A stretch of DNA of 64,000 nt from Streptomyces katrae (GTDB lineage: Bacteria > Actinomycetota > Actinomycetes > Streptomycetales > Streptomycetaceae). How positions within the stretch are numbered: position 1 is the stretch's first letter; each line of letters starts with the position of its first letter. The translations under genes and the position numbers were made by a program. Under the pieces are notes generated by a model. It saw only the letters and a list, made by a program, of their open reading frames with translations. It searched no databases and was not told the origin of the DNA. Positions 59,951-63,892 of this stretch are shown here, piece after piece. The DNA lies in NCBI RefSeq assembly GCF_000717655.1, contig NZ_JNZY01000011.1, forward strand, positions 162,299-226,298. The letters are read 5' to 3'.

Positions 59951-60565
59951 ATGCAGAAGCCCACCAGGACCGTCCTCGCTCTCGCCGCCGGAAGCCTGGT
60001 GCTCGGCTTGGTCGGCGCGGGCGCCGCCGCCGCGGACGCGGGCCCGACGGCCGGCACGCCGTCGCACCAGGCCGTCCTTCTCGAGCCGATGAGCGACCAG
60101 TCCGGCACCTACAACGACAAGAAGTACACCGTCGGCAAGGTCATCTCACATGGCCCGCTGAAGATCCGCAGCAAGCCGAACACACGTTCCGAGGTCGTGG
60201 GCCACGCCAAGCCGGGCCACAAGGTCGCCATCGTGTGCAAGACGTACGGCGAGTCGGTCGACGGCAACAACATCTGGTACCTCCTTCACATCAAGGAGGA
60301 CCACGAGTCGCAGGACGGACACGACGAGGACGGCGGGCGCGACGAGGACAGCGGGCGCGACGAGGACGGCGGCCGCGATGAAGACGGCGGCCGCGATGAA
60401 GACGGCGGCCGCGATGAAGACAGCGGGCGCGGTGAGGACGACGGACAGCAGGACGGGCGGGGCGGGGACGACCGGCGCAGCGGGCAGGACGGCAAGGAGC
60501 ACAAGAAGGCCTGGATCACCGCCCGTTACGTCAAGAACCTGGACCACGTGAAGTGGTGCGACTGA
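59951..60565 (+). CDS. secreted SH3-like protein with an acidic repeat insertion
   Basis: A 204-residue exported protein. The signal peptide is 1-29 ('LAAGSLVLGLVGAGAAAADA'). A bacterial SH3 domain starts near 60 ('YTVGKVISHGPLKIRSKPNTRSEVVGHAKPGHKVAIVCKTYGESVDGNNIWYLLHI'). It should continue straight into 'KKAWITARYVKNLDHVKWC' but is interrupted by about 75 residues (115-185), mostly six copies of a DEDGGR-type unit. The final pieces fit the last SH3 strands, so the insertion sits in a loop. Cys96 and Cys203 could form a disulfide. Likely a wall-associated or cation-binding protein. Confidence 0.82.
   Translation: MQKPTRTVLALAAGSLVLGLVGAGAAAADAGPTAGTPSHQAVLLEPMSDQSGTYNDKKYTVGKVISHGPLKIRSKPNTRSEVVGHAKPGHKVAIVCKTYGESVDGNNIWYLLHIKEDHESQDGHDEDGGRDEDSGRDEDGGRDEDGGRDEDGGRDEDSGRGEDDGQQDGRGGDDRRSGQDGKEHKKAWITARYVKNLDHVKWCD
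60323..60430 (+). repeat. six tandem 18-bp repeats (DEDGGR units)
   Basis: Six 18-bp units encode DEDGGR, DEDSGR, DEDGGR x3 and DEDSGR (residues 125-160). Units 3-5 are almost identical at DNA level (gatgaagacggcggccgc type), which points to recent slippage or unequal crossover. The net charge is strongly negative, with Arg at each unit end. Confidence 0.85.
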
Positions 60566-60574
60566 CCCTTCCGG

Positions 60575-60940
60575 TCAGTCCGCCGGGCGTACGGCACGCG
60601 GCCCCACGCACTCCGCCCCGTACGCCCGGACCCGCTCGCGCAGTTCCCGGTCCGCCGTGACCACGACGCAGCCCCGTTCCGCGAAGGAGGCGGCCAGTTC
60701 CACGATCCGGTCGTCGCCGCTCCCCGGCGCCGGGTCCACCCGTACTCCGGGCACGGACTCGACGCCCCGGGCGGCGCCCTCGACGACGAGGACGATCTCC
60801 TCGACCGCCCCGACCCCCTCGACCGGGGCCCGCTCCGCGAGGCGGTCGCGCAGCCGCTCGGCGGCGCCCCGCCGGTCCCGCCACCAGCCGTCCGGTACGG
60901 AACCGACGACGTTCGCGGCGTCCACGATCAACACGCTCAT
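60575..60940 (-). CDS. NYN/PIN-like domain protein (YacP-type, putative RNase)
   Basis: A 121-residue protein from ATG 60940. It has the NYN pattern: 'VLIVDAANVVGSVPDGWWRDRRGAAERLRDRL' (Asp7, Asn10), 'VDPAPGSGDDRIVELAASFAERGCVVVTADRELRERVRAYGAECVG' (acidic residues near 76-77 and the Asp of TADREL). The fold is that of small metal-dependent RNases acting on structured RNA. It is 53 bp downstream of the kinase-phosphatase gene and on the same strand, so it likely belongs to the RNA-repair operon. Confidence 0.75.
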   Translation of the reverse strand: MSVLIVDAANVVGSVPDGWWRDRRGAAERLRDRLAERAPVEGVGAVEEIVLVVEGAARGVESVPGVRVDPAPGSGDDRIVELAASFAERGCVVVTADRELRERVRAYGAECVGPRAVRPAD

Positions 60941-60993
60941 GGCCCCAGTATGGGCGGGTCCGGCGATCGCCCGCACCGCCCGTGCGCCGGCGC

Positions 60994-61926
60994 CTAGAAG
61001 TCGCCGTAGTTGACCTGCCAGGTGGGAAGGCCCATCCGGCGCCAGACCGCGACCACGCGGTCCCGGTCGTCCAGTGACACCCGTACCGCGTACCGGTGGC
61101 GCACGTGCGCGTCGAACAGCTCCGCCTTCACCACGTCGTCGCGGCGCGTGTCGCCGAGCGGGCGCATCCACAGCTCGTCGTACGGCACGTGGTGCCGCTG
61201 CAGCCAGGCCTCCGTCTGCGGCCGGTGCTCCTCACCGCGCCCGGACAGCAGCACGATGGTGTCACCGTCGGCGCGCCGGAAGGCGTCCAGCGCGTACCGC
61301 ACCGGCTCGTTGAGCGCGTCGATCCCGCAGCGCGAGAAGTCGTACGGGCTGCGGTCGCCGGTCAGCGCGAGCGTGCCGTCGATGTCGCACATCACCGCCG
61401 GGGGCAGCGCCGGGTCGGCCACGTACGGCTCGACCGCCGGCTGGTCGTTCAGCCACTCCGCGGTGAGCCGCCAGCCGCCCTTCTTCGCGCTCATGTGCTT
61501 GTCGTTGAGTATCCGGATGATCTCCTCGCCGACCGGCCGCTCCCGCGCGGCGTCCCGGCGCAGGCACTCCTCCACCGGCACGTCGGTGAAGTCGTGCACG
61601 ACGAAGGTGGCCCGTCCGGCCACCGCCGCCTTGAGCCGCTTGGGGATGTGCGAGGTCAGGTGCGTGTTGTCGACGACCACGTCGAAGCCGTCGTCGACGG
61701 CCGCGCGCACCGCCGCGTCCTGGACGGCCAGGACGGTCTGCTCGTGCCGGTACGAGCGGCTGCGCTCCGGGTCGGGCAGGTCCAGCATGGCCCGCAGGTC
61801 GTCCAGGTTGACGCGGCGCATCCGGCCCGAGGCATCGGCCTGCAGGGCGCGCGCGGCCGTCGTCTTCCCCGAGGCCGGCAGCCCCGTCATGACGTGGACG
61901 ACGGGGCGGGCGGGGTCTTCGGACAC
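60994..61926 (-). CDS. T4 Pnkp-like polynucleotide 5'-kinase / 3'-phosphatase
   Basis: A 310-residue two-domain enzyme. The kinase half has the P-loop 'TGLPASGKTT' (Lys21) and 'VNLDDLRAML' (Asp42/43, the likely general base). The phosphatase half has 'VMCDIDGTLALTG' (Asp181, Asp183), 'IVLLSGRGEEH', 'GDTRRDDVVKAELF' and ends 'VSLDDRDRVVAVWRRMGLPTWQVNYGDF', closely following the end of T4 Pnkp (WQVASGDF). It should phosphorylate RNA 5'-OH and remove 3'-phosphate, preparing ends for ligation. The start is 4 nt after the ligase stop. Confidence 0.9.
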   Translation of the reverse strand: MSEDPARPVVHVMTGLPASGKTTAARALQADASGRMRRVNLDDLRAMLDLPDPERSRSYRHEQTVLAVQDAAVRAAVDDGFDVVVDNTHLTSHIPKRLKAAVAGRATFVVHDFTDVPVEECLRRDAARERPVGEEIIRILNDKHMSAKKGGWRLTAEWLNDQPAVEPYVADPALPPAVMCDIDGTLALTGDRSPYDFSRCGIDALNEPVRYALDAFRRADGDTIVLLSGRGEEHRPQTEAWLQRHHVPYDELWMRPLGDTRRDDVVKAELFDAHVRHRYAVRVSLDDRDRVVAVWRRMGLPTWQVNYGDF

Positions 61927-61929
61927 TGG

Positions 61930-63144
61930 TCAGTTCTCCTCATCGGTGGTGAAGGGGTCGGACGCTTCCGGCCGCACGTCCCGCCATACGACGAGCTCGG
62001 TGGACCGGCCGTCCAGGCGCAGGAACATCGCGGGACGGATCCGGCGGTCGGGCAGGGCCCGCACGGCGCGCGCGAACGCGCCCCGGTCACCGGCCAGCGG
62101 GGCGAGCCGTGCGAACGCCTCGTCGATGGCGCGCTCACGCTGAGCCGCCGCGTCCTCGAGGCGGGCGACCACCTCGCGCACCCAGCTGTCGAACTCGTCC
62201 GGCACCTGCTCCAGCAGTGCCTCGAGCGGCTTGCCGCCCGAGGCCTCGATGTCGGCGACGGTGCAGTGCAGGCCCTGCGCCAGCTCCTTGACGGGCAGGC
62301 GGGCGAACCGCTCGATGCCGTGGCTGCGCCAGATGTCCCGCTCGGTGACGCCGGTGACCAGCTTGTGGAGGCGTACGTACTCGGCCAGCTTGGCCTTGGC
62401 GCGCACGCCGGAGGCGAACCGCAGCACGAAGCCCTCGGCGTCGGTGCCGGCGGCGTTCTCACCACCGGGCAGCGTGTTCGACTCGGCCAGCGCCAGCAGC
62501 TCGGCGAGCGGCATGGCGGGCCAGACCCTGACGACGGATCCGATCCCCTGCCAGTGGACCGCGGCCTCGGCGAGCGGGACCTCGGTGCCGTCCAGGGCGA
62601 ACGCCGCGAGGAGCACCAGGTCCCGCCGGTCGCCGTAGTCGACGACGATACGGTTCTGCGGGTACAGGATCTCCGCGAGGTAGGTCACGCCGGGGACGAG
62701 GGCCGAGGTGTCGCGGCCGTCGAGGTGGCGCTGGCCCCAGGTGGCCTGGGTGCTGATGAAGGATCCCTTGGACGCGACGCGCCAGCTGCCCGCGTAGTGG
62801 AAGACCACGGCGAGGCTGCCGTCGACCTTGTCGTACACCTCGAACGGCTCGTCGGGCAAGGCCGGTGCGTACGGCTGGCCGGCCTCGTGCTCGCCGACGT
62901 TGAAGAACTTCGGCAGCGGCAGCGCGACGATCGCGCCGGTGGCGTCGTCGGCGACGAGTCCCCGGCAGCGCGTGGTCACCTGGTTCCAGACGCGCCCGTA
63001 CTGTGCCGTCCGCGTGTACGTGTAGATGGACAGCGGCAGTTCGGGGTGCGACTTGCGGGTGACGTGCCCGGCGTCGATGGCTGCCGCCAGCTCCTGCTGC
63101 GGCAGCAGGTCGTGCAGCGTCGGGTAGGCCTGGTTGTGGCCCAT
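61930..63144 (-). CDS. T4 Rnl1-like RNA ligase
   Basis: A 404-residue nucleotidyltransferase. The ligase Lys is in 'EVYDKVDGSLAVVF' (Lys106, motif I), with 'WRVASKGSFISTQA' (motif III-like), 'VTYLAEILYPQNRIVVDY' (IIIa-like), 'AEGFVLRFA' (motif IV) and 'VRAKAKLAEYVRLH' (motif V). The C-terminal helical domain contains 'ARLEDAAAQRERAIDEAFARLAPL'. It joins 3'-OH and 5'-phosphate RNA ends, matching the product of the Pnkp encoded just after it. GGGAGGA lies before ATG 63144. Confidence 0.9.
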   Translation of the reverse strand: MGHNQAYPTLHDLLPQQELAAAIDAGHVTRKSHPELPLSIYTYTRTAQYGRVWNQVTTRCRGLVADDATGAIVALPLPKFFNVGEHEAGQPYAPALPDEPFEVYDKVDGSLAVVFHYAGSWRVASKGSFISTQATWGQRHLDGRDTSALVPGVTYLAEILYPQNRIVVDYGDRRDLVLLAAFALDGTEVPLAEAAVHWQGIGSVVRVWPAMPLAELLALAESNTLPGGENAAGTDAEGFVLRFASGVRAKAKLAEYVRLHKLVTGVTERDIWRSHGIERFARLPVKELAQGLHCTVADIEASGGKPLEALLEQVPDEFDSWVREVVARLEDAAAQRERAIDEAFARLAPLAGDRGAFARAVRALPDRRIRPAMFLRLDGRSTELVVWRDVRPEASDPFTTDEEN

Positions 63145-63205: not shown

Positions 63206-63892
63206 TTATCGCTGGTCCGGAGGGCTCTGGGCCAGGCGGTTGATGTCCTGGGGCCGCAGGATGCGGGTACGGACGTCGGCTCCGGGCCTCGCCACGTTGA
63301 TCATCGCGCGGCCCAGCGCCTCGGTGGTGGTGACGAGGTTCGGCGCGAAGCGGCGGAGCAGCGGGAAGAGCGGCGCGGTGACCAGGTAGGCGGCGCGGTA
63401 GAGGAGGGTCTTGGAGGGCATGTTGCGGACGGGCTGCACGAGGCCGGGGCGGAACATGTAGGCCTGGAACGGCAGCTGGAGCAGGTCGTTCTCCGTCTCC
63501 CCCTTGACGCGGGCCCACATGGAGCGGCTCTGCTCGGTGCTGTCCGTCCCCTCCCCGGAGACGTAGGCGAAGGTCAGCCGGGGGTTGGCGGCGGCGAGCG
63601 GGCGGGCCGCGGCGAGGGTGAGGTCGTGGGTGATGCGGCGGTAGTCCTGCTCCTTCATGCCGACGGCGGAGACGCCGAGGCAGAAGAAGCAGGCGTCGTA
63701 GGAGGCCAGGTCCAGGTCCGGCGCGGAGAGGTCGGACGGGTCGTCCTGGATGCGCTCGCGCAGCTTGGGGTGGGAGACACCGAGCGGGGTGCGGCCGACG
63801 GACAGGACGGCCGTGACGGTGTCGTCGCGCAGGCACTCACGCAGAACACCCCGGCCGAGCATTCCGGTTCCGCCGAAGAGGATGACGTTCAC
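63206..63892 (-). CDS. NAD(P)-binding atypical SDR protein
   Basis: A 228-residue Rossmann protein: 'MNVILFGGTGMLGRGVLRECLRD' is the nucleotide-binding start, with 'YDACFFCLGVSAVGMKEQDYRRITHDLT' and 'FAYVSGEGTDSTEQSRSMWARVKGETENDLL' further on. It resembles epimerase/HTATIP2-like proteins and lacks a clear YxxxK. The stop TAA (63206) lies 61 bp upstream of the RNA ligase start, so co-transcription is possible but not certain. Confidence 0.85.
   Translation of the reverse strand: MNVILFGGTGMLGRGVLRECLRDDTVTAVLSVGRTPLGVSHPKLRERIQDDPSDLSAPDLDLASYDACFFCLGVSAVGMKEQDYRRITHDLTLAAARPLAAANPRLTFAYVSGEGTDSTEQSRSMWARVKGETENDLLQLPFQAYMFRPGLVQPVRNMPSKTLLYRAAYLVTAPLFPLLRRFAPNLVTTTEALGRAMINVARPGADVRTRILRPQDINRLAQSPPDQR

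What the first reader, a model, noticed from the sequence alone, without database searches (positions are those of the whole stretch)
60575..63144. Compact RNA-repair operon: Rnl1-like ligase, Pnkp-like kinase-phosphatase and NYN-domain protein
The ligase has a K-V-D-G nucleophile and motif IV/V signs. The next gene, 4 nt away, encodes a T4 Pnkp-like 5'-kinase with a DIDGT phosphatase domain and a near-T4 C-terminus. A small NYN-domain (putative RNase) gene follows 53 bp later on the same strand. The first two enzymes together reproduce the phage T4 tRNA-repair logic: heal 2',3'-ends, phosphorylate 5'-OH, ligate. The NYN protein could be the nuclease that creates the breaks, a processing partner, or a toxin-like enzyme. 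I know of no described three-part set of this make-up in Streptomyces.
Basis: partly seen in the sequence, partly recalled or inferred. Interest (0 to 1): 0.78.

Follow-up and report, generated by a model that had tools for sequence, protein, structure and literature searches.

The report
Streptomyces RNA-repair ligase and kinase pair
Two neighbouring Streptomyces genes look like the phage T4 kit that mends cut RNA, and in some relatives they are welded into one protein; the small nuclease gene beside them is a late, dispensable arrival in one branch of the genus.

Summary
The three genes are real: an Rnl1-type RNA ligase (61930-63144), a T4-Pnkp-like kinase-phosphatase (60994-61926) and a small NYN nuclease (60575-60940), all minus strand. 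The ligase-kinase pair is a true unit: adjacent in 80 of 80 named loci examined, mostly end to end, and fused into one protein in 7 of those 80; a capped database search lists 58 fused proteins. The NYN gene is not part of that unit. It adjoins the pair in 11 of 31 ligase-bearing genomes and 26 of 80 named loci, all in one clade. There it moved once from a home site beside an amino-acid permease and dxs, and was later lost up to three times. Pair and NYN presence are unrelated across 150 genomes (p = 0.35). A PIN-fold nuclease should leave ends that need no Pnkp (recalled), so it is probably not the cutter. Best reading: an accessory T4-like RNA end-healing and sealing module whose ligase has relatives on phage-like contigs, probably mending ribotoxin cuts (inferred). 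Most open point: three lineages carry three different RNA-acting genes just downstream (NYN, RNase HI, DEAD-box helicase), which may be chance.

The parts
61930..63144 (-). Rnl1-type ATP-dependent RNA ligase, 404 aa (nucleophile K106 in KVDGS; motif Ia SKGSF 125-129; motif III E158 and NRIV 164-167; motif IV E237-G238; motif V K250/K252; motif names recalled)
60994..61926 (-). T4-Pnkp-like bifunctional enzyme, 310 aa: P-loop kinase (GLPASGKT 15-22) and HAD phosphatase (DIDGT 181-185), C-terminal VNYGDF as in Pnkp1 4xrp
60575..60940 (-). Small YacP/Rae1-like NYN nuclease, 121 aa (acidic residues D7, D76, D77, D97 invariant in 22 aligned sequences); lineage-specific neighbour, not part of the conserved unit

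Best explanation
The core is a two-enzyme RNA end-healing and sealing module of T4 type. Inferred mechanism: a ribotoxin or anticodon nuclease cuts a tRNA (or other RNA) and leaves a 2',3'-cyclic phosphate and a 5'-OH. The HAD domain of the Pnkp-like enzyme clears the 3' end and its P-loop kinase phosphorylates the 5' end. The ligase, adenylylated on K106, then joins the ends. The pair behaves as one unit (adjacent in all 80 named loci examined, mostly end to end, fused in some species into a ligase-linker-kinase-phosphatase protein). It is accessory, found in about a fifth of the sampled genus, and the ligase has relatives on phage-like contigs. The NYN gene is a widespread gene of the genus that was relocated once to the downstream side of the pair in the ancestor of one clade. 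It is not needed for the pair to persist and is probably not the nuclease whose breaks the pair mends. Shown here: gene content, motifs, predicted fold of NYN, adjacency, fusions, relocation. Inferred: activities, substrate, trigger.
For: Ligase-kinase adjacency in 80 of 80 named loci and in 30 of 31 ligase-bearing genomes out of 150 (G139 has no kinase match). In 59 of 80 loci the kinase start, extrapolated from the alignment, lies between 27 nt before and 13 nt after the end of the ligase gene; 7 of 80 are single-ORF fusions (L096, L097, L098, L112, L121, L123, L134), as are the unnamed-genome loci L006 and L007 (the printed part of L006 is identical to L096). Database search with a fused protein: 57 fused proteins of 753-801 aa plus one distant one, P0061 (only the 7993 candidates sharing most words were scored; domains rescanned for the query and P0061). 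Catalytic motifs invariant. Ligase profile finds T4 RNA ligase 1 first in the PDB (2c5u, E 3.6e-7). Kinase finds Pnkp1 4xrp (E 6.2e-42) and T4 PNK 1ltq (E 8.2e-30). NYN adjacency, with the three loci that lost NYN, is one side of a branch holding 30 rows (SH-aLRT 98), one gain and three losses (quick tree). The dxs-permease-LCP home site holds no NYN in 12 of 12 genomes with the clade's locus. NYN occurs in 26 of 31 genomes with and 107 of 119 without the ligase (Fisher p = 0.35, on counts). Phage-like contigs encode the ligase. T4 logic: passages of PMC3400036 and PMC4411300; phage RNA repair with kinases and ligases: passages of PMC7824862.
Against: No activity, substrate or expression evidence. 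No PrrC/RloC-type nuclease (PF13166) in 150 genus genomes (6 candidates per genome scored), so the classic trigger was not found resident. The ligase is far below the T4 RnlA equivalog cut-off (TIGR02308, 35.1 of 242.25 bits), phmmer with the single sequence finds no PDB chain, and its C-terminal part was modelled with low confidence. That PIN/NYN nucleases leave 5'-phosphate and 3'-OH ends is recalled, not read here. NYN stayed beside the pair in 26 of 29 clade loci, which a weak functional link would also give. In G119 ligase and kinase each fall into two matches, so that copy may be broken or misassembled.
Confidence: 0.75

Rival explanations
1. Three-part system: in this clade NYN works with the pair, as the cutting nuclease, a trimming partner or a quality-control nuclease.
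For: Same strand, about 14-180 nt downstream of the kinase in 25 of 26 loci and 571 nt in L126; kept in 26 of 29 clade loci; acidic nuclease residues intact.
Against: Adjacency is clade-bound with a single gain. The SH3 gene on the opposite strand is kept just as well (28 of 29 clade loci), so NYN is no more conserved than its surroundings. NYN is absent where the pair stayed (no match in G071 and the genomes of L092 and L102; outside the clade none in G004, G114, G143; all). A PIN-fold nuclease is expected to leave ends that need no Pnkp (recalled).
Confidence: 0.12
2. Third-slot recruitment: the pair repeatedly takes up an RNA-acting gene downstream (NYN nuclease, RNase HI or DEAD-box helicase, according to lineage), so a third RNA enzyme does matter but is interchangeable.
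For: Of 80 named loci, 26 have NYN, 10 RNase HI and 10 a DEAD-box helicase directly downstream on the same strand (families), in separate parts of the tree. Of the unnamed-genome loci, L024-L026 have the RNase HI and L012, L022 the helicase. Other same-strand downstream genes seen within about 350 nt: a LuxR-like one (L131, L136), a VOC-like one (L149, L164) and an unidentified one (L158); these labels are my reading of the translations.
Against: Noticed after the fact, in three lineages only. DEAD-box genes are multi-copy (3-5 strong matches in each of 20 genomes). 31 of the 51 loci outside the NYN clade have none of the three; in 10 of these 31 my crude caller reported no downstream gene at all. 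The genus-wide distribution of the RNase HI was not obtained.
Confidence: 0.2
3. The pair serves regulated RNA processing (splicing, circularisation or end capping of a host RNA) or nucleic-acid repair at large rather than repair of ribotoxin damage.
For: No PF13166 nuclease in the genus sample. Outside the NYN clade no neighbour family, apart from ORFs of the pair itself, recurs in more than 12 of 51 loci, so no partner toxin stands out; neighbours were not scanned for toxin families.
Against: Presence in only 31 of 150 genomes, varied surroundings and phage relatives suit a conflict-related accessory module better than a housekeeping role.
Confidence: 0.2

Closest known systems
Phage T4 tRNA-repair pair Pnkp and Rnl1 (passages of PMC3400036, and PMC4411300)
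   Same: Same two enzyme types; kinase-phosphatase similar over nearly its full length (1ltq); ligase N-terminal part matches Rnl1 (2c5u).
   Different: Chromosomal, the two genes adjacent or fused; ligase far below the T4 RnlA equivalog score.
Bacterial Pnkp1-Rnl-Hen1 complex (section 5 of PMC4411300)
   Same: Two-gene operon of a separate ligase and a T4-Pnkp homologue; Pnkp1 (4xrp) is the best PDB match of this kinase.
   Different: [quoted passage not shown] here it is of Rnl1 type. Hen1 was not searched for.
Trifunctional RNA ligase-kinase-phosphatase of baculovirus AcNPV (recalled; not in the listing) and the yeast/plant tRNA ligases (passages of PMC3400036)
   Same: One polypeptide with ligase and end-healing activities, as in the fused Streptomyces proteins.
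   Different: The Streptomyces fusion presumably arose separately (inference); yeast/plant enzymes use a 2H phosphoesterase instead of a HAD phosphatase. The window's own genes are not fused.
Rae1/YacP of B. subtilis (5mq9; named in passages of PMC11346440, and PMC6294520)
   Same: Predicted fold of the NYN protein and its acidic residues.
   Different: 121 aa against 159 residues in the 5mq9 chain; 23% identity in the fold alignment; ribosome-dependent cleavage not tested.

Membership tests
T4 Rnl1-type RNA ligase (PF09511) | Family profile score over cut-off | tested here: met
   56.9 bits against 28.3
T4 Rnl1-type RNA ligase (PF09511) | KxDG nucleophile and motifs Ia, III, IV, V (motif names recalled) | tested here: met
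   Invariant in 13 aligned sequences
T4 Rnl1-type RNA ligase (PF09511) | Rnl1-specific helical C-terminal domain (recalled) | tested here: inconclusive
   Mostly helical prediction but mean pLDDT 65; Foldseek ranks T4 Rnl1 first (5tt6, E 2.6e-6) with TM only 0.36
T4 RnlA equivalog (TIGR02308) | Curated equivalog score 242.25 | tested here: not met
   35.1 bits
T4-type Pnkp | P-loop 5'-kinase followed by DxDGT HAD 3'-phosphatase, in that order | tested here: met
   PF13671 and PF25109 over cut-off; matches 4xrp over residues 8-310 and 1ltq over 13-310
Pnkp1-Rnl-Hen1 repair system | Hen1 methyltransferase in the genome | not tested
   No Hen1 search was run
Pnkp1-Rnl-Hen1 repair system | Ligase of bacterial-Pnkp ligase-domain type | tested here: not met
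   Family and structure searches give Rnl1 type; no direct comparison with that ligase was made
YacP/Rae1 NYN nucleases (PF05991) | Pfam gathering score | tested here: not met
   19.4 bits against 24.6; a home-type relative gave no Pfam match at E 0.001; a few close homologues carry a PF05991 label
YacP/Rae1 NYN nucleases (PF05991) | NYN/PIN fold with acidic active site | tested here: met
   Rae1 5mq9 best fold match; D7, D76, D77, D97 invariant in 22 sequences
Three-part ligase-Pnkp-NYN system | NYN adjacent to the pair in most relatives | tested here: not met
   11 of 31 genomes, 26 of 80 named loci, one clade
T4-type RNA repair | Healing and sealing activity on cut tRNA | not testable with these tools
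   Needs biochemistry

The most novel reading that the evidence does not exclude
The pair has an open third slot: in separate Streptomyces lineages it has taken in different RNA-acting enzymes (a Rae1-like NYN nuclease, an RNase HI, a DEAD-box helicase) as interchangeable helpers that expose or trim damaged RNA before healing and sealing. In one lineage ligase and kinase have also merged into a bacterial trifunctional tRNA-ligase-like protein.
Probability: 0.2. Interest if true: 0.55.

Novelty: new member of a known kind. Interest (0 to 1): 0.36.

Why it matters
A T4-like heal-and-seal pair, separate in most species and naturally fused in others, is a ready subject for asking why some Streptomyces keep an RNA-repair kit and what breaks the RNA. 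The fused form could be a single-protein RNA repair or ligation enzyme. It also shows how a conserved-looking three-gene order can come from one relocation event, which adjacency in a single genome cannot reveal. Database names (mostly 'NTP pyrophosphohydrolase' for the NYN protein; 'AAA family ATPase', 'RNA ligase' or 'phosphatase domain-containing protein' for the fused enzymes) hide all of this.

Tried and rejected
Rejected: NYN as a core part. Rejected for lack of support: a tie to PrrC/RloC nucleases, 0 of 150 genomes with PF13166 (of 14 control genomes only E. coli rang; 6 candidates per genome scored). Rejected: reading the kinase's Zeta_toxin and BrxF hits as function; the two-domain match to Pnkp outranks them. 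Considered: any other widespread partner gene of the pair; none was seen in more than 12 of 51 loci outside the NYN clade. My gene caller is crude (GC3-based) and missed known genes in places, so neighbour lists are approximate; ligase, kinase, NYN, SDR, SH3, DEAD and RNase HI placements come from tblastn. In one search only the longest aligned piece of each enzyme was used per locus. Led nowhere: the phylum draw, ligase in 4 of 396 genomes and 1 of 236 genera (only 4 candidates per genome scored, so distant relatives may be missed); the low-confidence ligase model; phmmer of the ligase alone against the PDB. Paper searches showed nothing on the three-part set or on this pair in Streptomyces among the titles and abstract starts listed (20 of 35, 1 of 1, 20 of 21, 8 of 10, 15 of 187 and 10 of 36 papers). 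The 2016 survey of RNA-repair systems by Burroughs and Aravind, recalled as the likeliest place for such operons, is not held, so absence from print is not claimed.

Error of mine: one search used an out-of-frame reference for the RNase HI (start 8193 instead of 8200 in L167), and one entry had the same fault; both are disregarded. The gene was then read in frame (PF00075), but its genus-wide search failed.
Full report
What is there. The window holds three minus-strand genes at 60575-63144 as described: ligase 61930-63144, kinase-phosphatase 60994-61926, NYN 60575-60940. Spacers are 3 nt and 53 nt. A same-strand SDR-like gene (63206-63892; name from my reading, no Pfam match) ends 61 nt upstream of the ligase, so by spacing alone the operon could as well have four members. 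ARAGORN finds no tRNA gene in the window.

Identity. The ligase matches PF09511 RNA_lig_T4_1 (56.9 bits, cut-off 28.3) and the phage family phrog_562 (E 3.7e-48). A profile of 13 sequences finds T4 RNA ligase 1 first among solved structures (2c5u, E 3.6e-7), while the single sequence finds none. K106-V-D-G-S, S125-K-G-S-F, E158, N164-R-I-V, E237-G and K250/K252 are invariant in the 13; motif names are recalled. It is far below the T4 RnlA equivalog cut-off (35.1 of 242.25 bits). The structure model is weak (mean pLDDT 65), though Foldseek still ranks T4 Rnl1 first (TM 0.36). The kinase-phosphatase matches PF13671 and PF25109, Pnkp1 4xrp (E 6.2e-42) and T4 PNK 1ltq (E 8.2e-30) over nearly its whole length. 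The NYN protein is under the PF05991 cut-off, but its predicted fold (mean pLDDT 87.5) has Rae1/YacP as best match (5mq9, E 2.6e-6), and D7, D76, D77 and D97 are invariant in 22 aligned sequences.

The pair is a unit. Of 150 genus genomes, 31 have the ligase and 30 the kinase: the same genomes except G139, which has the ligase alone. In G119 both enzymes fall into two matches each, so that copy may be broken or misassembled. In 80 of 80 named loci the kinase follows the ligase on the same strand. In 59 of the 80 the kinase start, extrapolated from the alignment, lies from 27 nt before to 13 nt after the end of the ligase gene, and in 14 it lies 28-151 nt after it (start codons were not fixed). 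In the other 7 (L096, L097, L098, L112, L121, L123, L134), and in two unnamed-genome loci (L006, L007), one ORF of about 755-790 codons runs through both with a proline/alanine-rich linker (the printed part of L006 is identical to L096, so these may be one species). Searching the protein database with one fused protein, whose length excludes most separate enzymes, gave 68 hits among the 7993 candidates scored. Of these, 57 (P0001-P0057, 753-801 aa) bear both ligase and Pnkp-phosphatase domains, as does one distant metagenomic protein (P0061, 675 aa, 34% identity) (query and P0061 rescanned). On the ligase-kinase tree fusion needs three changes.

NYN is a late neighbour. It occurs in 133 of 150 genus genomes at E 1e-5, in 26 of 31 with and 107 of 119 without the ligase (Fisher p = 0.35). 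It adjoins the pair in 11 of the 31: G000 (the window), G134, G038, G078, G042, G054, G083, G039, G012, G046, G074. In the other 15 that have it, it is on another contig or at least 0.5 Mb away. In eight genomes fetched as examples it lies beside a conserved gene of unknown family (c1) and/or an LCP gene, in five of them (L069-L072, L076) also beside an amino-acid permease and near dxs. In 12 of 12 genomes with the clade's locus the dxs, permease and LCP genes are together with no NYN match in the fetched stretch. Among 80 named loci, 26 have NYN next to the pair. With the window, and with three loci that kept the neighbouring SH3 gene but not NYN, they are one side of a branch of 30 rows (SH-aLRT 98): one gain, three losses (quick search, rooted at the midpoint for drawing). 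Of the genomes of those three loci, two (L092, L102) have no NYN match and one (L152) only a short one (query residues 3-25) on another contig; G071, which has the clade's SH3 gene beside the pair, has none either. These are drafts. Outside the clade G004, G114 and G143 hold the pair with no NYN match, and G023 with only a weak one. Within the clade the opposite-strand SH3 gene is kept in 28 of 29 named loci and NYN in 26 of 29, so NYN adjacency is no stronger than background synteny.

Chemistry. T4 Pnkp turns a 2',3'-cyclic phosphate and a 5'-OH into ligatable ends before Rnl1 joins them (passages of PMC3400036; PMC4411300). NYN belongs to the metal-dependent PIN-like superfamily (passage of PMC11346440). 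Such nucleases are expected, from recall, to leave 5'-phosphate and 3'-OH ends, which need no Pnkp. So NYN is an unlikely source of the breaks.

Distribution and kin. The ligase profile was met in 4 of 396 phylum genomes, in 1 of 236 genera (4 candidates per genome scored). Of the best 80 named relatives (263 confirmed), 78 are labelled Streptomyces, one Microtetraspora, one only Actinobacteria. Of 61 viral contigs with a relative of the ligase, 23 have a kinase match in the stretch held. The nearest, L169-L183, have the ligase at 56-64% identity; only L169 shows the kinase beside it, and the stretch of L182 ends within the ligase match. L184, L185 and L186 have both enzymes on one strand, 15-384 nt apart, at 43-57% identity. 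Neighbours on such contigs look phage-like (my reading of the translations, not run through Pfam). 586 phage records, 133 of them named Streptomyces, match the ligase, all below 60% identity; 33 plasmid records match too. No PF13166 nuclease was found in 150 genomes.

The third position. Besides NYN (26 of 80), an RNase HI (10 of 80: L150, L156, L159, L161-L163, L165-L168; 58-81 nt away) and a DEAD-box helicase (10 of 80: L107, L109, L116, L118, L119, L124, L125, L140, L144, L148; 112-305 nt away) sit downstream on the same strand (Pfam), in their own parts of the tree: one change for RNase HI, three for the helicase (one of these, L133, is a stretch that ends just after the kinase). Among the 31 remaining loci outside the NYN clade, the same-strand genes seen within about 350 nt are LuxR-like (L131, L136), VOC-like (L149, L164) and unidentified (L158); in 10 of the 31 my caller reported nothing. 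The pattern was noticed after the fact and could be chance; DEAD-box genes are multi-copy.

Known or new. A ligase and Pnkp as a pair is known from T4, and a ligase plus T4-Pnkp-like two-gene operon from the Pnkp1-Rnl-Hen1 bacteria (section 5 of PMC4411300). A fused ligase-kinase-phosphatase is recalled from baculovirus. The Streptomyces pair is therefore a new member of a known kind, with a fused variant that I did not see described in the listings; one likely source is not held.

Noticed in passing
L096, L097, L098, L112, L121, L123, L134 (named loci); P0001-P0057, P0061: Ligase and Pnkp-like enzyme fused in one protein (about 750-800 aa in Streptomyces, 675 aa in the distant P0061), with a Pro/Ala-rich linker in the loci read; database names include 'AAA family ATPase' and 'RNA ligase'.
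   Followed up: yes
L150, L156, L159, L161-L163, L165-L168; L107, L109, L116, L118, L119, L124, L125, L140, L144, L148: RNase HI or DEAD-box helicase gene just downstream of the kinase in lineages without NYN there.
   Followed up: partly
P0059, P0065, P0068: RNA ligases of 711-805 aa bearing a LAGLIDADG domain (PF03161), possibly inteins in the ligase.
   Followed up: no
window 60575-60940: Most close homologues of the NYN protein that bear a name are called 'NTP pyrophosphohydrolase' (a few 'NYN domain-containing protein'); the predicted fold supports the latter.
   Followed up: partly
window 60300-60440: The SH3-domain protein (59951-60565, plus) has an acidic GRDED-like repeat tract; the gene is conserved beside the pair in the NYN clade.
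   Followed up: no
L148:6001-6198: A partial second ligase match (47% identity) lies just upstream of the full-length ligase in S. scabiei 87.22.
   Followed up: no
L169-L183: Phage-like contigs with the ligase at 56-64% identity; a kinase was found beside it only in L169.
   Followed up: partly
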